NCBI GenBank assembly: GCA_024682995.1
Contig: JAIKYR010000167.1
Location: 1-33,972, forward strand
Source of the DNA: Bacteroidales bacterium
Lineage (GTDB): Bacteria; Bacteroidota; Bacteroidia; Bacteroidales; WCHB1-69
DNA: 33,972 bases
Direction of reading: 5' to 3'
The notes beneath the pieces were generated by a model that saw only the letters and a program-made list of their open reading frames with translations, had not been told where the DNA came from and made no database searches. Of the stretch, positions 16,741 to 32,217 are shown one piece after another (positions within the stretch are counted from its first letter, which is position 1; each line of letters opens with the position of its first letter). The translations under genes and the position numbers were made by a program.

Positions 16741-17622
16741 TTATTTACTTACAGCCAATCGCAATCCGACGGACACAGACTGGTTCTTTTCGGGAAGAGA
16801 GTTCCGGGCCTTGCAGCGGCAAAAATCAGATTCGTAGGAAAAACTGCCACCCCTCACCACACGTTTTGTGCCTGTGGCAGGACCTGTCGGGTTATCTGAA
16901 TTGCCGCTTGTATAGCCACCATAATAGTCCGAGCACCATTCCCACACGTTGCCGCTCATATCGTACAAGCCCAAACGATTGGGTTCAAGTTCTCCCGAAA
17001 TATGCATTTTCCCATTCGCATTATCCCGATACCAGGCCACAAAGTCCGCATTATCGCTCCCACTATAGGTATAACCATCGGAGTGTTTCCCTCCACAGGC
17101 AGCATATTCCCATTCCGCTTCCGTGGGCAGTCTGAATTGCATATCATATAGCATCTTGTACGTCAGCCCGGCATATTTATTCAAACGGTTGATGAACTCC
17201 TGTGCCTGCTCGTATGAAATGAAATTGGCCGGATAATCCTCCCCTTTCCCAAAATCCTCACTCCATAGAGGATTTTCCTCACCCATGATGGCTGTCCATT
17301 GTTTCTGGGTAACCGTCACTTTCGCCATATAAAACCATGACAGTGACACATCGTGACGGGGTTTTTCATCCTCCTGCTTATTCGAGCCCATCTTAAATGC
17401 ACCACTTTGCACATATACCATCGATTCCACAATCTCCTGGACTGCTTCCTTGATATTCGGATCCAGGTCATCACTACCCCACTGGATCAACAATCCATTA
17501 ACATATTCCAGACGATTATCATCGTTATAGCGGTAATGTCCCTTGTCAAAATCGTCACAAGAAATTGTCGATAAAATTAATGCAATGGATAATACCGCAA
17601 CGAGCAATCTAAAATTTTTCAT
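16741..17622 (-). CDS. SUMF1/FGE-fold lipoprotein
   Basis: 293 residues with a lipoprotein signal (LILSTISC, Cys22, followed by DD), so it is lipidated and may stay periplasmic or be exported to the surface. Residues about 68-293 are an FGE-sulfatase/SUMF1 domain: MVYVQSGAFKMGSN, LPTEAEWEYAACGG, NRLGLYDMSGNVWEWCSD, RVVRGGSF and a final SVGLRLAV. In Bacteroidota such lipoproteins (GldK/GldJ relatives and others) are usually structural or binding proteins rather than formylglycine-generating enzymes. The expected catalytic cysteine pair was not seen clearly. The start overlaps the end of the barrel gene by 14 nt, implying translational coupling. SUMF1 and FISUMP share the C-type-lectin-like fold, so two related binding folds sit next to each other. 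Confidence 0.85.
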   Translation of the reverse strand: MKNFRLLVAVLSIALILSTISCDDFDKGHYRYNDDNRLEYVNGLLIQWGSDDLDPNIKEAVQEIVESMVYVQSGAFKMGSNKQEDEKPRHDVSLSWFYMAKVTVTQKQWTAIMGEENPLWSEDFGKGEDYPANFISYEQAQEFINRLNKYAGLTYKMLYDMQFRLPTEAEWEYAACGGKHSDGYTYSGSDNADFVAWYRDNANGKMHISGELEPNRLGLYDMSGNVWEWCSDYYGGYTSGNSDNPTGPATGTKRVVRGGSFSYESDFCRCKARNSLPEKNQSVSVGLRLAVSK

Positions 17623-18766
17623 TTTTTAAAACTTTAACGGTTTGTTTTTTTGTGTTTTTATTATCCACAGGCAGACAAAAGCCCAGTCCCACTTTCAGTT
17701 CCGCGCTTCGGAAATTAGTGGTTACAGCTTCAAAAGAAAGAGCAAAGCCTTTGATGTCAAACAGAAAGCCAAACGAGACATCCACCCCATGCAGAGTCTG
17801 TTTCGGATAGGAATACCATTCATTGTCTATGGTTTTGTAAACGAATGTTCGGTAACCATAGCCAACACCGAACAACATGGACATGGGTCTGCAGGGCCGT
17901 ATGACGAGTCCTGTCTGGGCGGACAGCCGTATTGGTTTACGGTCTGTCAGCCAGTAATGCTGTCCGTTCTGAAAAGGATGCTTCCACCCCTTGAAGCGGA
18001 AATTCGTCATCACACCTGCATACCAGCCCACAATCTTCATCTGACCGACTTTGAACCCATAGGACCACACTGAATATGGCATGTATTTTTTATAATTATA
18101 GCCGTAAGTATTAAGCGTGAATGCAGAATTTAAGGTAAAGAAGGTGCTGTAGGGCATACTCTGCATCCTTGATCTTCTCTCTTCTTTTTTAATTTCTTGT
18201 TCATTTGCCTTCTTTTCCTTCTCAAGAGCCTTTTCCTTATCCTTCGCCTCTTTCTCATTCGCTTTAGCTTCCATTGCAAGAGCTTTTTCCTTCTCTTTCG
18301 CTTCCTTTTCATTCGCTTTGGCTTCCATCGCAAGTGCTTTCTCCCTCTCTTTCGCCTCTTTCGCCTTTGCTATCTCATTTGCCTTTCTCTCTTCTTCCTC
18401 CTTTTTTGCCGCCTCACGCAGCTGTTTCTGCCATTGAGCCTCTGCATTGGCATCCACTTTCACCCTGAAGAAGATGTCGTCGTTGTGCAGTTCCTTCATT
18501 TCCGCCTGCACGTCCCACACGATGGTCTTGTGGCCCGGCCCTATGGTTTTGCCCACATCGCCGCTCACTTTGTACAACTGCGTGTAAGTGCCGCCTCCGT
18601 CCATGGAGACAAACAGAGAGATGTCCGCCGCCTTGTCAAGGTCGTACGACACGTGGATGGTCTTCCCCACCTGCTCGGCGGTGACGTTGGAGACATTTTG
18701 GGCGTAAACAGCACATCCGTAAAACATCATCACCAACCACAAGGTTGTTTTACAAATCCTATTCAT
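17609..18766 (-). CDS. Exported Ig-like / charged coiled-coil / outer-membrane-barrel-like protein
   Basis: 385 residues. A signal peptide (TTLWLVMMFYGCAVYAQ) is followed by an Ig/FN3-like domain (about 24-105: NVSNVTAEQVGKTIHVSYDL), then a very charged Lys/Glu/Ala coiled coil (about 106-195) with three 18-residue tandem repeats, then a beta-strand-rich C-terminal domain (about 205-365) with alternating aromatic and small residues (SYGFKVGQMKIVGWY, GVGYGYRTFVY, FGFLFDIKGFALSFEAV, KVGLGFCLPVDNK). This last domain matches that of the gene at 30457 block by block and is probably a small outer-membrane barrel. The coiled coil could span the periplasm or contact peptidoglycan. The 3' end overlaps the SUMF1-like gene by 14 nt. 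Confidence 0.75.
   Translation of the reverse strand: MNRICKTTLWLVMMFYGCAVYAQNVSNVTAEQVGKTIHVSYDLDKAADISLFVSMDGGGTYTQLYKVSGDVGKTIGPGHKTIVWDVQAEMKELHNDDIFFRVKVDANAEAQWQKQLREAAKKEEEERKANEIAKAKEAKEREKALAMEAKANEKEAKEKEKALAMEAKANEKEAKDKEKALEKEKKANEQEIKKEERRSRMQSMPYSTFFTLNSAFTLNTYGYNYKKYMPYSVWSYGFKVGQMKIVGWYAGVMTNFRFKGWKHPFQNGQHYWLTDRKPIRLSAQTGLVIRPCRPMSMLFGVGYGYRTFVYKTIDNEWYSYPKQTLHGVDVSFGFLFDIKGFALSFEAVTTNFRSAELKVGLGFCLPVDNKNTKKQTVKVLKNEKF
18197..18358 (-). repeat. Three 54-bp tandem repeats encoding an 18-residue charged coiled-coil unit
   Basis: Residues 137-190 are EAKEREKALAMEAKANEK, EAKEKEKALAMEAKANEK and EAKDKEKALEKEKKANEQ. The period is 18 residues (54 bp), compatible with a continuous helix. 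Copy number could vary between strains by slippage or recombination. Confidence 0.8.
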
Positions 18767-18803: not shown

Positions 18804-20489
18804 TCAATTGAACCTCCACTCTCCCCAACTCTCCTGCACCTGCGATGCCATATTCACTTCAGGAGTTTGATCCTTACGATTCACACGAAGACTGTGGTCA
18901 CCCACATTTTTATTCAAATAGTTATACAATTCGGAATAGGTGCATTGCCCTTTACTTTCCTGCAATTTCTTTAGGAGGAAATAGGTGAACATACCATGGT
19001 TTTTCTCTGTGTATGGCAAGGCTGTTTGGTCGGCCGAGGTGGCAGAGAACACGACAATGTTGCCGCTCAATGCATCTCTCTTTGGGGTCACTTTTATGCC
19101 TCGGGAGGCCACTAATCCGGCTTCGCGCCCGCCGCCGCTGAAACAGGCATCGAGAAACACGGTCACTTTTTGTGCGCCCGTGCTGCACAGTTTGCTGTAA
19201 AGGTCGTACAGCGGGATGGCGGATTTGAGGTTGGAAGCGTTCACGTCCACCGGTATCAGATAGGGTTCTTTTGTGTTTTCATCCGGGAAACCGTGTCCCG
19301 CATAATAGAAGATGATTTCGGCTTCCGGATCTCTTGCAGCAAGACGTGTTATATAGTCTATTTCCTGATTCATTTTTGCACCAGTAGCATTATTCAAAGC
19401 GACAACATTCCGTTCCTCAACTCCAAGTGTCTTCACACAATACTGTTTGAAAATATTAGCATCCTCGGCAGCAAAGGGCACATCCTGCTCACTATTCAAA
19501 TCCTTCTGGAAGGAATGGTAGTCCTGGTTTCCTATAATGATAGCATATCGGTATGGATTTTGGCTGTTTGATATAGGGATATTCCTATCTACATCCGAAC
19601 GGAGTTGAGCGTCTTCAATTGTGGTTGGAGCAGAAATTTTCGCCGCCACCTCTATAGGGCCTTTCCCTAACGTCTGATTCAGCTCGAAAACGATGGTCGT
19701 GTCTTTGGCGTATTTCCCGTATTTTTCCCTTATAAAGACTTGTAACGGCAGCGTGCTCTTATCATATATGTTGTTAATTAAGAATTTGTATTTCAGTTCG
19801 CGAGTCTCTCCCGCCGACATTTTCGGGAATATGTCCACCAAATCCCGTCCTTCCAAGTTAACCACATTTTCCGGGTATTTGAGTGTCACTGTCACATCTT
19901 CACCAAGACCATACTGTGTGTTTTGAATCAGAATCGTCACTTGGAAAGGGTCCATCTTCACAAGTTTTCCTCCATCTTTGCTGGTGGCCTCACAATCCTT
20001 CACCTCAATCATGGGTGCTTGGAATGCCTGTGTGGTAACCACTATCGGGAACTTGTCGGTAGTGAAGCCCATCGGTTCGTTGATAAAGACCGTAAACGTC
20101 GCTTTCCCGTCCACCGTGTTCATATTGGCGGTGACGGGAAATTCCACCGTTGCGGTGCCGCCAACGGGAATGTCGGGGATTCTCCTGTCGAAGACTGAGA
20201 TGCCATTCGAGCTGCCGGATACTGAAATCTTGGCGGTAAGCCCAGTCCCTTCTCCCGTGCCGATATTCTTCACCTTCATCACAATCTTGCAGTTTTCGTT
20301 GGCATCGATAGCCTGGTTCCCGTCGGCATCCACAAATTCAGGTTCTTGCACAATCTCCCACAATGGCGGTTTCACTTCCTTGGCAATGTGGAAACTATAG
20401 CGCGGAGAGGTGGCCTCCGTCTGGGCGGATGTGTTCAAGGCAAATGCCGTTAAGATAAGGAACGTCAGGGTAAAAAATCTCTTTTTCAT
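18804..20489 (-). CDS. Secreted caspase-family (C14-like) peptidase with Ig-like N-terminal region
   Basis: 561 residues. The signal peptide MKKRFFTLTFLILTAFALNTSAQ directs export, unlike most cytoplasmic metacaspases. Residues about 40-290 form two beta-sandwich regions with CARDB-like patterns (CKIVMKVKNIGTGEGTGLTAKI, VTILIQNTQYGLGEDVTVTL). The caspase domain begins at YRYAIIIGNQDYHSFQKDL (about 315) and has an intact dyad: His399 in FYYAGHGFPDE and Cys449 in FLDACFSGGG. An AIPLYDLYSKL segment and a QTPEVN-type end complete the domain. Such enzymes usually cut after basic residues. The gene starts 13 nt after the anti-sigma gene and is the first non-regulatory gene of the array. Targets are unknown; surface partners in the same operon or the anti-sigma factor are candidates. 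Confidence 0.88.
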   Translation of the reverse strand: MKKRFFTLTFLILTAFALNTSAQTEATSPRYSFHIAKEVKPPLWEIVQEPEFVDADGNQAIDANENCKIVMKVKNIGTGEGTGLTAKISVSGSSNGISVFDRRIPDIPVGGTATVEFPVTANMNTVDGKATFTVFINEPMGFTTDKFPIVVTTQAFQAPMIEVKDCEATSKDGGKLVKMDPFQVTILIQNTQYGLGEDVTVTLKYPENVVNLEGRDLVDIFPKMSAGETRELKYKFLINNIYDKSTLPLQVFIREKYGKYAKDTTIVFELNQTLGKGPIEVAAKISAPTTIEDAQLRSDVDRNIPISNSQNPYRYAIIIGNQDYHSFQKDLNSEQDVPFAAEDANIFKQYCVKTLGVEERNVVALNNATGAKMNQEIDYITRLAARDPEAEIIFYYAGHGFPDENTKEPYLIPVDVNASNLKSAIPLYDLYSKLCSTGAQKVTVFLDACFSGGGREAGLVASRGIKVTPKRDALSGNIVVFSATSADQTALPYTEKNHGMFTYFLLKKLQESKGQCTYSELYNYLNKNVGDHSLRVNRKDQTPEVNMASQVQESWGEWRFN

Positions 20490-20502
20490 AAATTATATTT
20501 TG

Positions 20503-21369
20503 TTATTGTACTTGATAATCGATTTTAACTTGTCCGCTGCGAGTCTCTTGCTTCCCATCCCGGAAAGTCACCTGAAGATGCCAGTCCAACTGCTTTTCGG
20601 GATACACGGTTTTGTATGTCAGGGAAAAATGCTTCGCAGATGGGTCATTGGTCTCCGCAATCAGTTTGCCTTGCGTATTCTTCACCGTAAGACGCAACGA
20701 TTGTACATTTTCCGTTTCCCATTCAAAGTTGAGACTTTTTTCCAAATTCTTGCAAAGCACCCTATAATCATTCTTATCGGGCTTCAGCACCTTCAACAGG
20801 TTGGCTGTCTGTGTGTGGGCATATTGTTTCTCTAACACCTGGGAATTGTAGTTAACCTCAGGAGCAGTCATATCCTCCTTGTTTTCTTCTGCAGATTTGG
20901 GGGATTCAGAAGAGTTCTTCAATGAAGTGTTGGATTGTGCCAAATTCTTATCTGTTTTGGGTTGGGTGGTTGTAACCGCAGAGCTGTCAGTGTTGTTTTG
21001 GACAAACTTCTGTTCCGTAGAATCGGGTCGGAAGAGGACGAACAGGGCTACCGCCAAGACTATAGCCAATGAGGCTGCCATCGCCCACACGACACGCATC
21101 CGTGCTTTCCGCTTCTGCACAAAAAGGTCTGAGGATTTCTGAATGTCGCGATTGAGAGTGGCTCTGATCTGTTCCTCAGCTTTTGCCATGTCGGGCTTTT
21201 TCCGCGGTGGATTATCCGCTAATTGGGCCGCTACCCCAATAGCAGCCAAGTCCTCCAAGGAAAGGTCTTCCGCTTCCATAGCCTGAAGGAGGCGAGCCTC
21301 TTCAAGCTCGTCCGTCTTGCCCTCCAAGAATCTGGAAAACAGCTCGTCTGATATGTTCATTTCCTTCAT
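20503..21369 (-). CDS. Single-pass membrane anti-sigma factor
   Basis: 288 residues. The N-terminal cytoplasmic helical part (1-90; ISDELFSRFLEGKTDELEEARLLQAM) has the look of an anti-sigma domain. A single transmembrane helix covers about 93-113 (VVWAMAASLAIVLAVALFVLF). The periplasmic part is a Ser/Thr/Asn-rich linker followed by a beta-rich C-terminal domain (FEWETENVQSLRLTVKNTQGK, WHLQVTFRDGKQETRSG). The start codon overlaps the sigma stop in an ATGA, the standard coupling for sigma/anti-sigma pairs. It would release the sigma factor on an envelope signal, possibly by proteolysis. No zinc-binding HxxxCxxC motif is present. Confidence 0.82.
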   Translation of the reverse strand: MKEMNISDELFSRFLEGKTDELEEARLLQAMEAEDLSLEDLAAIGVAAQLADNPPRKKPDMAKAEEQIRATLNRDIQKSSDLFVQKRKARMRVVWAMAASLAIVLAVALFVLFRPDSTEQKFVQNNTDSSAVTTTQPKTDKNLAQSNTSLKNSSESPKSAEENKEDMTAPEVNYNSQVLEKQYAHTQTANLLKVLKPDKNDYRVLCKNLEKSLNFEWETENVQSLRLTVKNTQGKLIAETNDPSAKHFSLTYKTVYPEKQLDWHLQVTFRDGKQETRSGQVKIDYQVQ

Positions 21370-21938
21370 GACCTGTAATCTTTTAACATTTTTCTTAAAT
21401 GTGCCATCGCTCTGCTCTTCACCGTATAGGCATAATCCACGGATAGCTGATGTCTCTTTGCAACCTCTTGTATGTCAACCCCGTCCAACAACAGTTCTTG
21501 GGCCACTTCCCGTTCGGTGCTGTTTTTCAGACAACTAACAGCCTTCCTCACATCCAGTCTCACCTGATTATGACATTCCTGTTTGTACTGCATGATTTTA
21601 TCGTCCCACTGCTCATATATAGTTACAAGCCCATTGGAATCTATCTTCCTTTTTTTGAAATTCATGAAAAAACGGAAGGAGACCACAGAAACCCATGTGT
21701 TCAGTTGAGCCTTGCCGGAATCAAAGGAACGCAAGCGCCGCCAATCATCCTCGGCAAGGTGGAGAAAGAACTCATGTACCAATGCCTGCACATCAACCTC
21801 GTATGGGAAAATCCGATATATGTGATACTCGAAAACGCCGTAATACTTCTCGTAGAAAAAATAGAGTATCGCCTTCTCGTCATTGGCGAGAATCCAATTC
21901 AGAAGATTGGTATCCGACATCGTTTTAAAGCGGTCCAT
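21366..21938 (-). CDS. ECF-type sigma-70 family factor
   Basis: 190 residues from the ATG at 21938; the track's TTG start at 21974 adds 12 residues. A strong AAAGGAGG lies 13 nt before this ATG, and a further Met occurs six codons in (MSDTNLL). Region 2 is visible at about 7-100 (FFYEKYYGVFEYHIYRIFP, LVHEFFLHLAEDDWRRLRSF, LNTWVSVVSFRFFMNFKKRK), and region 4 at about 140-188 (STEREVAQELLLDGVDIQEVAKRHQLSVDYAYTVKSRAMAHLRKML). It is the first gene of the array and should direct RNA polymerase to its own operon and perhaps other targets. The start lies about 90 nt downstream of a terminator that ends the structured leader or ncRNA. Confidence 0.88.
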   Translation of the reverse strand: MDRFKTMSDTNLLNWILANDEKAILYFFYEKYYGVFEYHIYRIFPYEVDVQALVHEFFLHLAEDDWRRLRSFDSGKAQLNTWVSVVSFRFFMNFKKRKIDSNGLVTIYEQWDDKIMQYKQECHNQVRLDVRKAVSCLKNSTEREVAQELLLDGVDIQEVAKRHQLSVDYAYTVKSRAMAHLRKMLKDYRS

Positions 21939-22027
21939 AAGCTCTATTTGTCCTCCTTTATGGGTAAGCTGCAACCTTCCACTCGGCGATTCCCGAACCG
22001 ATCAAAAAACACATCCGAATCCACATA

Positions 22028-27310: not shown

Positions 27311-28663
27311 ATGCGCAAACACCCCCGACAACATACTATAATAAAGAAAGTTGTCCATCGGGTTTCCCTATGGGCTCGGAATGTGCATGATGGGTGTAAC
27401 CGCCTGCTCCGACATATTAACCTCCATAAGCTAGGCAACATCGGGTTCGCCCTTCTTAGTGCCTTCGTCTTGAGTGTATGTTGTTATATTGTTGAAAACC
27501 AACCATATAACCTCATGGAAAAGTCACTCTTATACTATCTGTTAGAGTGGCCTTTCAATAGTGACAGCACCACAGATAATGAAGAAGCCTGCTTCATCAA
27601 CATCAGCCACGACCGCCAGCTAGTCAGCATTGACCCGCGGGACAGCACTGCCGGCAACATCGACATCACCGACCGTGCCAAGTTGCTGGCATTCTTGCAG
27701 ATGCTGGAACGTGACAACGTGCCATACAAATACATACTCTTGGATATCCGTTTCGAGAAAGGGCTCACCACCCCTGTTGACACGCCCCTTTTCCGCCAGA
27801 TATGCCGTATGCGCGACATCGCCATCGCGCACCATGCCAACGATGCGTGGGACAATTATGAGCTTGCCTTTGACAGTCTGCAGGGTAAAACCGGCATGTC
27901 GGATTATGCACAGTTAGGCTTCGCACGCAACTTTTCCCGATACACCTTCCTACAGGACGGCGGGCCCTCGTTGGCATTGAAGATGTACGACGACACGCGG
28001 CACCAGGCCACCTCCATAAAGCGATTCCGCCGCTGGCCTCTGTACACCAGTTGCGGTTTGCTCTGCACCAACTCTCCAATGCTGGCCATCCGAGGCAACA
28101 TCTACAACAAAATGGATGCCCCCGTCATGGAAGAGGGTCCGGGATTCATCTACAATTTCTACGAGGATCTCGGCGCTGACATTCTATCTTTGGAAGGGCG
28201 GAATCTGGCCGAAGACTTTAAAAACAAATACCTGATAGTAGCCAATCTTGAGAGCGACATGCACGACACATACACCGGCCCAATGCCTGGCGCTTATCTC
28301 ACCTGGCTGGCATTCTTGCATCTGCGTGACGGACATCATCTGCTGCACTGGCCTTTTATTATCCTCATGTTCGTATTTTATGCGGCCATCTTTTACTTCC
28401 TGTTTTTCATCAACCGTATGGCCCGCGGCAAATGGGCCTCTCACTCGCGAATACGCCAGTTCCTACTCGGCCTCATTCGCTGGATAGGATCCTGCGGACT
28501 GCTTTATTTAGTGACCTTTATCGCCTATCTCGCCTTTGCCGTACGTTACAACGTCACCATCCCCATCCTGGGCGTCATCATTGCCAATTTTATTATTAAT
28601 ATAGCAAACAACAATGAAAAGAACAACAACCCTTCTGGTCTGGATGCTGCTCCTTCTGCTTAA
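27311..28663 (+). CDS. CHASE2-like membrane sensor protein
   Basis: 450 residues. One transmembrane helix (about 42-62, IGFALLSAFVLSVCCYIVE) is followed by a large extracytoplasmic domain (about 65-340) with the CHASE2-type pattern: FINISHDRQL, a PYKYILLDIRFEKG strand, and a late FKNKYLIVANLESDMHDTYTGPMPGAYL segment. Three helices end the protein (about 345-434). There is no cytoplasmic kinase or cyclase domain, so the output must come from partners. The gene follows the threonine dehydrogenase by 18 nt and overlaps the caspase gene by 50 nt in another frame. CHASE2 is known as an extracellular sensor domain and is often found with adenylate cyclases or peptidases. The ligand is unknown. Confidence 0.75.
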   Translation: MRKHPRQHTIIKKVVHRVSLWARNVHDGCNRLLRHINLHKLGNIGFALLSAFVLSVCCYIVENQPYNLMEKSLLYYLLEWPFNSDSTTDNEEACFINISHDRQLVSIDPRDSTAGNIDITDRAKLLAFLQMLERDNVPYKYILLDIRFEKGLTTPVDTPLFRQICRMRDIAIAHHANDAWDNYELAFDSLQGKTGMSDYAQLGFARNFSRYTFLQDGGPSLALKMYDDTRHQATSIKRFRRWPLYTSCGLLCTNSPMLAIRGNIYNKMDAPVMEEGPGFIYNFYEDLGADILSLEGRNLAEDFKNKYLIVANLESDMHDTYTGPMPGAYLTWLAFLHLRDGHHLLHWPFIILMFVFYAAIFYFLFFINRMARGKWASHSRIRQFLLGLIRWIGSCGLLYLVTFIAYLAFAVRYNVTIPILGVIIANFIINIANNNEKNNNPSGLDAAPSA

Positions 28664-30437
28664 TGCTGAAGCCACCGACTACAAAATATTGAAAATGAGC
28701 TGCGACTCCATCAAAATCGGCAATCAATGGTGTCGAAAAGGTTCTGTATTCAACGATGCGGACAACATCCGCTGGCCTGGAGGGTACCAGTTCCTATGGG
28801 CGCAGAACCAGTCCACCCAGCGGACATACTACATCTCCAGCGATGCCATGAATGCCAAAAGCAGCCGTACCCTCAAGGACTATGTGCTCCGGCTGAACAA
28901 AATGTCAAGCCGTGACGGGGAGATCTGGCAGAGTCTGATAGGGAAAAACAAGGAGAATTTTACTGAAAAAAGAATCGCCTTGGTCATAGGGAATTCTAAC
29001 TATCAGAACAACACGCAATTGAGAAACGCCATCAATGACGCACACGCCGTAAGCGCCGAACTGCAACAATTGGGATTCGATGTATATAGCCTGTACGATG
29101 GTACCGGAGAAGATATGGCCAACGCCGTGGAGCTGTTCCGGAAGAAAGCCGTAGGCAACGGGTATAAAATGGCCCTCTTCTACTATTCCGGACATGGTCT
29201 GCAGGGGGATGATGGTAACAACTACCTGCTGCCAGTGGATGCGAAACTGAACAGCAAAGGCGACTTAAGCACCTGTATTGACGGGCGATGGCTGGTTTCC
29301 AAGCTATCGGACGCCAACTGTGCCAACACCATCGTGGTGCTGGACGCGTGCCGCAACGAGAAACTGAACTGGACTCGCGGGCTCACCGACGGCCTCATCC
29401 CGCTGGCACCGCCTCTCGGCATGCTTCTGGCCTACTCCACGCAGGCAGGCTCCGTGGCACAGGATATGATTGACGATGACCTGCCCTATGGACCGTATGC
29501 CAACGCTCTGGTGACCGCTCTGAAAAAAGACAAAAGCTCTGTGGACGAACTCTTCTCCGAAGTGAAAAACCAAGTCATCCAAAGCACCTCCGCCATCCAA
29601 GTGCCCACCATCTTCAACAACCTGCTCAAAACCGTTTACATCAACGGTCAGAACCAATACGAAGTGCTCACGCCCGAGCAGGCCAGAGCCGAAGCCAAGA
29701 AGGCCTTCGACTCACGCGTGCAGCTGGCCGAGCAGGGCGACCGGGAGGCCCAGTATGAGCTTGGCATGGCATACGAGTTCGGATCGCAGTTCTGCGACAC
29801 CAACCGGGCCGAAGCATACAAATGGTACACCAAGGCCGCCAACCAGGGGCACACAGAGGCAGAGAACAAATTAGGCACCTATTACTTCCTGGACGAGAAC
29901 AACTTGGAAGAGGCCGTGCATTGGTATGATCTGGCCGCCAAAGGGGGAAACGGGAATGCACAATACAACCTCGGGTTCATCTATCTGAACGCCACCGGAA
30001 GTCTCTCGAAACCGTCAGAGGGTTTGGAATGGATGCGCTCTGCAGCGGAATCAGGTGTGGTGAACGCCCAATACGAGCTCGGACGTTGCTACTACGATGG
30101 CATTGACGGCTTGCAAGTACCCTACCGCACCGAAGCTTTCCGATGGTTTAAGGCCGCCAGTGAACAGAACCATCTGGAGTCCCAGTACTATCTGGGCCGT
30201 TGCTACTTCTACGGCGACGGCACTGACCAGAACTACTCGGAGGCTTTCAAACACTATCAGATCGCCGCCAACAAAGGCATGGCTGAAGCCGAATACGCAC
30301 TTGCGCTCTGCTACGAAAAGGGCTATGGCGTGGATCCGAACAAGGAAACCGCTATCGCCTGGTGTCGGAAAGCAGCCGACAAAGGCTACGACAAAGCCAT
30401 CCGCCGCCTGTCCATTTTAGTTCCCGAAGGTCAATAA
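28614..30437 (+). CDS. Exported caspase-like peptidase with Sel1 repeats
   Basis: 607 residues. The ATG at 28614 lies inside the end of the CHASE2 gene and gives a clean signal peptide (TTTLLVWMLLLLLNAEA). The caspase domain runs from about 120 (KRIALVIGNSNYQNNTQLRN) to about 345. The dyad is intact: His194 in FYYSGHGLQGDD and Cys246 in VVLDACRNEK. Residues about 370-605 hold Sel1-like repeats (AEAYKWYTKAANQGHTEAENKLG and several more), which bind protein partners. The combination fits a secreted, scaffolded protease. The 50-nt overlap with the CHASE2 gene suggests translational coupling. The barrel-FISUMP gene follows after 19 nt. Confidence 0.88.
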   Translation: MKRTTTLLVWMLLLLLNAEATDYKILKMSCDSIKIGNQWCRKGSVFNDADNIRWPGGYQFLWAQNQSTQRTYYISSDAMNAKSSRTLKDYVLRLNKMSSRDGEIWQSLIGKNKENFTEKRIALVIGNSNYQNNTQLRNAINDAHAVSAELQQLGFDVYSLYDGTGEDMANAVELFRKKAVGNGYKMALFYYSGHGLQGDDGNNYLLPVDAKLNSKGDLSTCIDGRWLVSKLSDANCANTIVVLDACRNEKLNWTRGLTDGLIPLAPPLGMLLAYSTQAGSVAQDMIDDDLPYGPYANALVTALKKDKSSVDELFSEVKNQVIQSTSAIQVPTIFNNLLKTVYINGQNQYEVLTPEQARAEAKKAFDSRVQLAEQGDREAQYELGMAYEFGSQFCDTNRAEAYKWYTKAANQGHTEAENKLGTYYFLDENNLEEAVHWYDLAAKGGNGNAQYNLGFIYLNATGSLSKPSEGLEWMRSAAESGVVNAQYELGRCYYDGIDGLQVPYRTEAFRWFKAASEQNHLESQYYLGRCYFYGDGTDQNYSEAFKHYQIAANKGMAEAEYALALCYEKGYGVDPNKETAIAWCRKAADKGYDKAIRRLSILVPEGQ

Positions 30438-30456
30438 CCCATTCAACCCTAACGAT

Positions 30457-32217
30457 ATGAGAATCAAAAACATCATACTATCCATAGTGTTGCTTTGCAT
30501 CGGTGTCGTCTTCACCAATCCGACAAAGGCACAGCTGTCGTTCCAGCCGGCACCATTTACCACAACCTTGACGGAGACCTCTAACCCTTCCGCCATCAAA
30601 CCGGTGGAAAAGAAAAGCAAACCGATACGTCATTCCACATTCTTAACCCTGAATGTGCAGACGCTGCCTCTTACGAAGGAGATCGGCTTTTTCGACATTC
30701 ACAATTTCTCTTACGGTCTTAAAATCGGTACGATGCGGAAATCGGGATGGTACTTGAGCCTGATGAGCAACTTCTGGTTCCCTGGCTCTTTCCGCGCCGG
30801 AAACGCCGAGCAGCTGACAAACCCTCTGGATGTCCGGAACTCCTATTTCGAAGGAATGCTGGGTCTTACCGGACGTTATTGGAAACCTATGTCATTCCAT
30901 TTTGGAATCGGTATGAACTACCGTACGACCAACTATCTGTGCAAGGATCACGTGTGGCGCAACCAGCAAACGGAGCGCGGATACGGCCCGGTGGTGGCCA
31001 GCGGCTTCATGTTCCACATCACTGGCTTCGTACTCTCTGCTGAAGCTGTATTACACTACTCGATTCAGGAAGGATCCTTCCGCGACAACCTCTACATCGG
31101 AGCCAAGGTGGGAGTTGGATTTTGCTTAGTGGATAAAAAAGGGAAGAAAAACGCGCCGAAAAAAGAGAAGCATATGGAAAGCTCCCTGACACGCAGTCTG
31201 GTCCCCATCACCGCCACACCCGAATATGGCGGACAATATACAAGTTCGCCCCTACCGAACATTTTGTTCGCAGACAACCGGGCAGTAGAAAGCCTTGACG
31301 ACGAAGACCACCCCGACACACAGGAAAAGCTAGCGCCAGCTACCGCTCCAGCAACCGCAGACCCCACTTCCGTCAACAAGAATGCAGAAGCAACAAGCGC
31401 CACTGAAACAAGCACTTCGCAAAGCGAATCTAAAGATATGGTTGAAACAAAATCCGATGCCATTTCAGCCGAAGATCTTTTAAAAGAGGGTTTGTTTCCG
31501 GAGGAAGAAGAAACAGCCGACTCTCTTGACGCACAATCGTCTGAGCCGAAGCCTTGCGGCAAGTTGAAAGTCACCGACGCGGACCACAACGTCTATCACA
31601 CCGTGACCATCGGCAGCCAGTGCTGGATGGCAGAGAATCTCCGTTCAACCACCGACCCATGGGGCCATCGGATTTTGCAAGGGCGTCATGCCGACAGCAA
31701 CATCGCCTACCGGTATTGTCCCGGCGGCGACACGGCCACCGTGCGCGCCTACGGATATCTCTACAACTGGAAGGCCGCCTCGGGACAGACCTGGATTATG
31801 CAGCAAAACGACACTCTCGGGCGCGGCATCTGTCCGCAAGGCTGGCACCTGCCCAGCAGCGCCGAATGGGACCTGTTGGCCCTCTATTTAGCCAGCTATG
31901 ACGAATATGTCTGCGGCGGACAGAACGGACGCATTGGCAAGTCAATAGCCGCCACACGCGTATGGCGGACCTCCGACAAGGATTGTGCCATTGGCAACAA
32001 TCCTAAGGCAAACAACGCATCGGGGTTCTCGGCCCTGCCAACCGGCAACTACAATGGAACTTATATGGGATTCGGTCGGGAGACAGGCTTTTGGTGCCAC
32101 ATGCCGAATGGCAAAGTGGGCCCGATCCGAGTATTGCGCACCGACAGCGACGCTTTGCTCCCCGCCCAGCCGGAGAACGCCGCCGAAGCGTATGCGGTGC
32201 GGTGTGTAATGGACTAA
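30457..32217 (+). CDS. Outer-membrane-barrel-like protein fused to a FISUMP domain
   Basis: 586 residues. A signal peptide (NIILSIVLLCIGVVFTNPTKAQ) is followed by a beta-rich domain at about 45-230 (STFLTLNVQTLPLTK, SYGLKIGTMRKSGWYLSLMS, FHFGIGMNYRTTNYL, GFMFHITGFVLSAEAV, GAKVGVGFCLVDKK) that matches the C-terminal domain of the gene at 17609. A low-complexity Thr/Ser/Ala/Glu-rich linker (about 235-363) leads to a FISUMP domain (about 364-586: VTIGSQCWMAENLRS, GYLYNWKAAS, GICPQGWHLPSSAEW, YAVRCVMD). The design suggests a surface anchor displaying a lectin-like head. It is the last gene of the CHASE2-caspase group, and the next gene has its own promoter. Confidence 0.82.
   Translation: MRIKNIILSIVLLCIGVVFTNPTKAQLSFQPAPFTTTLTETSNPSAIKPVEKKSKPIRHSTFLTLNVQTLPLTKEIGFFDIHNFSYGLKIGTMRKSGWYLSLMSNFWFPGSFRAGNAEQLTNPLDVRNSYFEGMLGLTGRYWKPMSFHFGIGMNYRTTNYLCKDHVWRNQQTERGYGPVVASGFMFHITGFVLSAEAVLHYSIQEGSFRDNLYIGAKVGVGFCLVDKKGKKNAPKKEKHMESSLTRSLVPITATPEYGGQYTSSPLPNILFADNRAVESLDDEDHPDTQEKLAPATAPATADPTSVNKNAEATSATETSTSQSESKDMVETKSDAISAEDLLKEGLFPEEEETADSLDAQSSEPKPCGKLKVTDADHNVYHTVTIGSQCWMAENLRSTTDPWGHRILQGRHADSNIAYRYCPGGDTATVRAYGYLYNWKAASGQTWIMQQNDTLGRGICPQGWHLPSSAEWDLLALYLASYDEYVCGGQNGRIGKSIAATRVWRTSDKDCAIGNNPKANNASGFSALPTGNYNGTYMGFGRETGFWCHMPNGKVGPIRVLRTDSDALLPAQPENAAEAYAVRCVMD

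What the first reader, a model, noticed from the sequence alone, without database searches (positions are those of the whole stretch)
27311..32217. Second, reduced version of the system: CHASE2, caspase-Sel1, barrel-FISUMP
Three overlapping or nearly touching genes encode a CHASE2 membrane sensor with no attached output domain, an exported caspase with dyad His194/Cys246 plus Sel1 scaffold repeats, and a barrel fused to FISUMP. The caspase/barrel/FISUMP set is the same as in the larger array, but CHASE2 takes the place of the sigma/anti-sigma pair. Two independent occurrences of the set within 20 kb argue that the combination is functional rather than accidental.
Basis: partly seen in the sequence, partly recalled or inferred. 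Interest (0 to 1): 0.78.

Follow-up and report, generated by a model that had tools for sequence, protein, structure and literature searches.

The report
Envelope caspase operon with CHASE2 sensor
In rumen Bacteroidales, an exported caspase-type protease is encoded with a membrane sensor that has no output of its own and an outer-membrane barrel protein, and related sensor-protease gene pairs across the phylum suggest a little-studied way for bacteria to control proteolysis inside their cell envelope.

Summary
Three overlapping or abutting genes encode a divergent stand-alone CHASE2 protein (27311-28663), an exported C14 caspase with six Sel1 repeats and an intact His194/Cys246 dyad (28614-30437), and a barrel-FISUMP protein (30457-32217). 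The same order recurs in six related genomes with differing flanks; CHASE2-caspase pairs without a barrel occur at two more loci. CHASE2 membership is indirect: Pfam misses the window protein, but its profile neighbours match PF05226.

A wider survey changes the picture. Stand-alone CHASE2 proteins were examined in 34 other GTDB families. About 26 sit beside a conserved, unnamed secreted protein, and 16 have an exported caspase or CHAT protease within 8 kb, far above the caspase background. In one distant genome the secreted domain, caspase and an outer-membrane barrel form one protein next to CHASE2.

My best reading is a trans-envelope module in which CHASE2 and the protease meet in the periplasm, so the signal need not cross the inner membrane. 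That CHASE2 replaces the sigma/anti-sigma pair is not shown. The two caspases are not sisters, and FISUMP is too common (39 matches) to count as evidence. Caspase plus barrel is a real repeat.

The parts
27311..28663 (+). Stand-alone CHASE2-type inner-membrane protein, 450 aa: TM ~43-61, periplasmic sensor region ~64-347, three C-terminal TMs, 18-residue tail, no output domain
   Evidence: ORF; no direct Pfam hit; profile kinship to PF05226 members; hydropathy and charge
28614..28663 (+). 50-bp overlap of CHASE2 and caspase genes; overlaps of 29-86 bp recur in L003, L004, L005, L020, L021, L023, consistent with translational coupling
28614..30437 (+). Exported C14 caspase with Sel1 repeats, 607 aa, His194/Cys246; acidic residues D142, D244, D284 at the MALT1 S1-pocket positions
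   Evidence: Pfam; signal peptide; invariants in A2; MALT1 alignment
28671..28949 (+). N-terminal region of the caspase (residues 20-112), possibly homologous to the secreted partner protein that accompanies stand-alone CHASE2 elsewhere
   Evidence: hhalign 67.7%, E 4.9e-5 against one partner set; weaker with wider sets, controls worse: suggestive only
28968..29639 (+). Peptidase_C14 catalytic domain
29721..30413 (+). Sel1 repeat array (approximate limits)
   Evidence: Pfam six stretches; confident alpha-solenoid in the AF2 model
30457..32217 (+). Exported barrel-FISUMP protein, 586 aa
   Evidence: ORF; FISUMP Pfam and TIGR02145; hydrophobic signal peptide
30604..31176 (+). Predicted outer-membrane beta-barrel, homologous to the barrel at 17612-18214; one of three copies in the genome
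   Evidence: no Pfam barrel match here, but a distant locus has OMP_b-brl_2 fused to a caspase (L099)
31603..32208 (+). FISUMP (Fib_succ_major) domain
17609..18766 (-). Barrel protein of the larger array, related to the trio's barrel; its N-terminal domain resembles secreted proteins near caspases elsewhere
   Evidence: barrel kinship; N-terminal domain E 2.9e-4
18804..20489 (-). Caspase of the larger array (CARDB + C14), not a sister of the trio's caspase
   Evidence: Pfam; tree

Best explanation
This is a trans-envelope signalling module with a protease as its output. The stand-alone CHASE2 protein sits in the inner membrane with its sensor domain in the periplasm. The caspase is exported by its signal peptide and works in the same compartment, probably held on the CHASE2 sensor domain by its N-terminal region and on other partners by its Sel1 solenoid. 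The barrel-FISUMP protein sits in the outer membrane and senses or presents something there. A signal through the barrel or directly on CHASE2 would switch the caspase on or release it, and it would then cut envelope proteins, most likely after Arg or Lys as paracaspases do. The signal never has to cross the inner membrane. Shown: gene order, domains, intact catalytic residues, signal peptides, co-conservation, phylum-wide linkage. Inferred: barrel placement, physical contact, direction of control, cleavage specificity, substrates.
For: The ordered trio is conserved in six other genomes with varying flanks. CHASE2 and caspase genes overlap by 29-86 bp in seven of ten loci. All three genes are under purifying selection. 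Stand-alone CHASE2 across 34 other families: secreted partner adjacent in 24, plus two with CHAT between; C14 or CHAT within 8 kb in 16. Caspase background is 201 in 198 genomes, giving p~1e-9 or less for the 12 families with C14 even at eight caspases per genome. In the Pfam-recruited set, 4 of 6 stand-alone CHASE2 have a caspase nearby against 1 of 13 CHASE2 proteins with an attached C-terminal part (Fisher p=0.017). Every linked protease whose start is intact carries a signal peptide, L148 by eye only. L099 fuses the secreted domain, C14 and an OMP_b-brl_2 barrel next to CHASE2. Precedent: in Sinorhizobium the outer-membrane barrel receptor NsrA acts with CHASE2 cyclases (PMC7529298; PMC13001267).
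Against: No physical interaction or activity has been tested. 18 of 34 families have stand-alone CHASE2 without a protease within 8 kb, so the protease is not obligatory. The AF2 model of CHASE2 is uninformative (pLDDT 34.5) and that of the caspase is confident only for Sel1. The link between the caspase N-terminus and the secreted partner is only suggestive. The barrel is inferred from sequence pattern and homology; no Pfam barrel model matches it. The query alignments for part of the census were seeded with caspase-linked loci, a mild bias.
Confidence: 0.5

Rival explanations
1. Surface remodelling or nutrient-binding unit: barrel-FISUMP is the functional protein, and the caspase matures or turns over FISUMP and other surface proteins, with CHASE2 merely an anchor or envelope-stress sensor.
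For: FISUMP is expanded in this genome (39 matches) and the barrel family also occurs fused to an FGE-like domain on contig C71, so barrel plus lectin-like domain may be a general surface theme.
Against: CHASE2-caspase pairs persist without any barrel or FISUMP in L024 and L025, and L021 keeps CHASE2-caspase-barrel without FISUMP. Across the phylum the constant parts are CHASE2, the secreted partner and often a protease.
Confidence: 0.2
2. Conflict or cell-suicide module: CHASE2 senses damage or an invader and the caspase kills the cell by cutting envelope proteins, as proposed for other bacterial caspase systems.
For: Caspases with CHASE2 as a C-terminal domain are described beside TRADD-N conflict systems (PMC8195603). 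Distant CHASE2-like relatives L039 and L040 are about 555 aa, and L039 carries a C-terminal TIR domain. Distribution is patchy, 10 of 104 family genomes.
Against: PADLOC gives only a generic caspase match and nothing for the other two. The linked proteases are exported, whereas the described CHASE2-caspase fusions place the caspase in the cytoplasm. No phage-defence genes were seen flanking the trio.
Confidence: 0.2
3. Operon by proximity only: accessory genes travel together by horizontal transfer without a shared function.
For: FISUMP proteins are everywhere in the genome; the trio is sporadic in the family.
Against: Gene overlap, constant order with different flanks, enrichment over the caspase background and the L099 fusion of domain, caspase and barrel.
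Confidence: 0.08

Closest known systems
Cyanobacterial caspase-CHASE2 fusion protein (Trichodesmium; Asplund-Samuelsson 2012 PMC3501461, Jiang 2010 PMC2853523)
   Different: There one protein with the caspase predicted in the cytoplasm; here two proteins with the caspase exported to the sensor's side of the membrane, plus a barrel protein
EACC2-caspase proteins of TRADD-N systems (Kaur 2021, PMC8195603)
   Same: Caspase with CHASE2 among the variable C-terminal domains
   Different: Fused single protein with an EACC2 domain; the trio's caspase has Sel1 repeats and a signal peptide. NCBIfam's EACC1-type caspase model scores below its cut-off (50.5 vs 140 bits); EACC2 was not tested
NsrA with CHASE2 adenylate cyclases CyaK, CyaD1/D2 of Sinorhizobium meliloti (PMC7529298, PMC13001267)
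   Same: Outer-membrane beta-barrel receptor working with inner-membrane CHASE2 proteins
   Different: CHASE2 there carries a cytoplasmic cyclase; here CHASE2 has no output domain and a periplasmic protease is the candidate output. Sequence kinship of the barrels was not tested
BiofilmReg operon of Burkholderia: secreted LysM-FecR protein plus CHASE2 histidine kinase (PMC5192318)
   Same: CHASE2 gene beside a secreted partner gene
   Different: Output is a kinase; the Bacteroidota partner matches no Pfam FecR or LysM model
MALT1 paracaspase
   Same: Closest solved relative of the catalytic domain (1.1e-16); dyad and acidic S1 positions align
   Different: Eukaryotic and cytosolic; no Sel1 repeats and no export (general knowledge)

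Membership tests
CHASE2 (PF05226) | Direct match to the Pfam model above cut-off | tested here: not met
   No match for the window protein or anywhere in its genome
CHASE2 (PF05226) | Homology to accepted CHASE2 proteins through profiles | tested here: met
   hhalign 100%, 5.9e-40 to a set whose members L037 and L038 pass PF05226; 16 of 20 family members match PF05226
CHASE2 (PF05226) | Topology: N-terminal TM, extracytoplasmic domain, three TMs | tested here: met
   Hydropathy and charge
CHASE2 (PF05226) | Cytoplasmic output domain, usual for CHASE2 receptors | tested here: not met
   18 residues follow the last TM; many relatives are stand-alone too
CHASE2 (PF05226) | Fold of the sensor domain | tested here: inconclusive
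   AF2 pLDDT 34.5; no solved sequence relative
Peptidase C14, paracaspase/orthocaspase type | C14 domain with His/Cys dyad | tested here: met
Peptidase C14, paracaspase/orthocaspase type | Acidic S1 pocket for Arg/Lys at P1 | tested here: met
   D142, D244 and D284 align with the MALT1 acidic pocket positions and are invariant in A2; pocket assignment in MALT1 is from general knowledge; activity untested
FISUMP | PF09603 / TIGR02145 above cut-off | tested here: met
   103 vs 33.9 bits and 111.2 vs 41.65 bits
Outer-membrane beta-barrel | Match to a known barrel model or barrel fold | tested here: inconclusive
   No Pfam match; strand-like pattern and signal peptide; a distant locus has OMP_b-brl_2 fused to a caspase
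Known anti-phage defence systems | PADLOC system match | tested here: not met
   Only a generic caspase model, nothing for CHASE2 or the barrel
EACC-associated caspase systems | EACC1/EACC2 domain | tested here: inconclusive
   Caspase model NF047832 below cut-off; no EACC2 model was tested

The most novel reading that the evidence does not exclude
A phylum-wide, undescribed class of trans-envelope receptor in Bacteroidota: a CHASE2 protein without output domain pairs with a conserved secreted adaptor and, in about half the sampled families, an exported caspase or CHAT protease, so that signals are turned into periplasmic proteolysis without crossing the inner membrane. The rumen trio is a lineage-specific version with the adaptor domain fused to the caspase and an outer-membrane barrel-FISUMP protein as the outer sensor.
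Probability: 0.4. Interest if true: 0.78.

Novelty: new variant of a known kind. Interest (0 to 1): 0.6.

Why it matters
CHASE2 ligands and the job of bacterial caspases are both open questions. Linking a stand-alone CHASE2 protein to an exported caspase in one small, conserved operon gives a compact system in which both can be tested. If right, it adds envelope proteolysis to the known outputs of CHASE2 (kinase, cyclase) and moves at least some bacterial caspases out of the cytoplasmic cell-death frame.

Tried and rejected
Direct Pfam, NCBIfam and PADLOC searches of the CHASE2-like protein found nothing. FecR identity of the secreted partner was tested and not found in Pfam. Caspase N-terminus as the partner domain: hhalign 67.7% with one set, 8.8-13.9% with wider sets, controls below 1%, kept as suggestive only. 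A separate partner gene in the host family was sought and not found. The idea that the trio is a reduced copy of the larger array was rejected by the caspase tree. FISUMP as evidence of relatedness was rejected because of its abundance. The A1 search hit in L041 is a false positive by its sequence, and L066 is a weak hit; neither entered the census count.

Full report
OBSERVATION. The caspase matches Peptidase_C14 (1.2e-37) and Sel1 (six stretches); the third protein matches FISUMP (3.2e-29); the first matches nothing. The His194/Cys246 dyad is invariant in ten orthologues.

IS THE FIRST PROTEIN CHASE2? Pfam CHASE2 does not hit it or anything else in its genome. A profile of eleven family homologues aligns over 371 columns with ten stand-alone proteins from other Bacteroidota families (hhalign 100%, 5.9e-40), and members of that set pass PF05226 (L038 1.4e-8, L037 1.3e-6). 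Of twenty proteins in the combined alignment, sixteen match PF05226 at E<=0.01. Topology fits: TM near 43-61, a long acidic loop, three C-terminal TMs, positive cytoplasmic loops. I take it as a divergent stand-alone CHASE2 protein. AF2 could not add to this.

IS THE TRIO REAL AND WIDER THAN THIS GENOME? Homologues of the CHASE2-like protein occur in 10 of 104 family genomes, the window's own included. The complete ordered trio is in L003, L004, L005, L020, L022 and L023. L003-L005 share the upstream epimerase gene with the window; L020, L022 and L023 have other flanks. L021 has a barrel without FISUMP. L024 and L025 have only CHASE2 and caspase, followed by a 153-156-residue secreted protein. 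CHASE2 and caspase genes overlap by 29-86 bp in seven of ten loci. dN/dS is 0.04-0.18. So the invariant core is CHASE2 plus caspase; barrel and FISUMP vary.

TWO OCCURRENCES IN ONE WINDOW. The genome has 39 FISUMP matches, so FISUMP near FISUMP says little. It has only two C14 caspases and three copies of this barrel. The two caspases are each beside a barrel; the third barrel is fused to an FGE-like domain on contig C71 (by eye). The caspase-barrel pairing is therefore a true repeat. The two caspases are not sisters: the trio's caspase groups with a caspase-Sel1 protein from a CHASE2 locus elsewhere in the phylum (L038, support 100/99), while the larger array's caspase groups with L114 (100/99) in another part of the tree.

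PHYLUM-WIDE CONTEXT. CHASE2 searches recruited stand-alone CHASE2 proteins (open frame under 560 aa) in 34 other GTDB families. In 24 families an unnamed secreted protein of about 150-380 residues lies next door, and in two more (L061, L063) it lies beyond an intervening CHAT gene. C14 or CHAT lies within 8 kb in 16 families. Caspases average about one per genome (201 in 198), about 0.5% per locus by chance; even at eight per genome the observed 12 families with C14 would have p around 1e-9. In the set recruited by PF05226 alone, 4 of 6 stand-alone CHASE2 have a nearby caspase, against 1 of 13 CHASE2 proteins of about 730 residues with an attached C-terminal part (p=0.017). Caveats: two of the query alignments were seeded with caspase-linked loci, and the CHAT background was not measured.

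FUSION EVIDENCE. In L099 (another family of the phylum) the gene next to CHASE2 encodes signal peptide, partner-type domain, C14 and an OMP_b-brl_2 barrel in one chain. This joins parts that in the window lie in the caspase gene and the barrel gene. The window caspase's own N-terminal region (20-112) may be the same partner domain: hhalign 67.7%, E 4.9e-5 against the first partner set, but only 8.8-13.9% with enlarged sets, with unrelated controls under 1%. No separate partner gene was found in the host family. I treat this as suggestive.

MECHANISM. Every linked protease with an intact start has a signal peptide (L148 by eye). The caspase and the CHASE2 sensor domain thus share the periplasm, and CHASE2 has only 18 residues after its last TM. 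It carries no cytoplasmic output domain, so the protease is the likely output. The catalytic domain's nearest solved relative is MALT1; acidic positions that line MALT1's S1 pocket are kept (D142, D244, D284), predicting Arg/Lys specificity. If the barrel is an OmpA-like even-stranded barrel, its C-terminal FISUMP domain would also face the periplasm; this is inference. A precedent for barrel-to-CHASE2 signalling is NsrA with CyaK and CyaD1/D2 in Sinorhizobium (PMC7529298).

KNOWN AND NEW. Caspase and CHASE2 were known together as fusions, with the caspase predicted on the cytoplasmic side in the cyanobacterial case (PMC3501461, PMC2853523, PMC8195603), and CHASE2 beside a secreted FecR/LysM protein with a kinase output (PMC5192318). 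In the held literature I found no account of split CHASE2 with exported caspase or CHAT proteases, but most subscription journals are not held. I rate it a new variant of a known kind.

Noticed in passing
L003:2567-5737 vs window 18804-21974: Caspase, anti-sigma and sigma genes of the larger array are 99.7-100% identical between two genomes while the CHASE2 gene nearby is 91% identical, suggesting recent transfer or replacement of the array.
   Followed up: no
L039:8230-9894 and L040:8515-10182: CHASE2-like proteins of about 555 residues; the L039 protein has a C-terminal TIR domain (TIR_2 4.2e-11).
   Followed up: partly
L152:2246-4325 (own genome, contig C71): Third barrel copy is in a 397-residue frame that looks like an FGE-type domain plus barrel, next to another FGE-like gene and near a FISUMP protein.
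   Followed up: partly
window 17609-18766, residues 20-105: N-terminal domain resembles secreted proteins that lie near caspases in L097, L100 and L114 (E 2.9e-4).
   Followed up: partly
L097:5506-6870 and L100:2491-3870: A papain-like (by eye) secreted cysteine peptidase gene lies between the secreted partner and the caspase in two CHASE2 operons.
   Followed up: no
L022:5948-6283 and L023:8321-8647: A small TerB-like (by eye) protein gene lies just upstream of CHASE2 in two trio loci.
   Followed up: no
L024:6606-7076 and L025:7585-8046: A 153-156-residue secreted protein of unknown family follows the CHASE2-caspase pair where barrel-FISUMP is missing.
   Followed up: no
whole genome G000: 39 FISUMP matches, several in very long proteins of 1,100-5,500 residues.
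   Followed up: no
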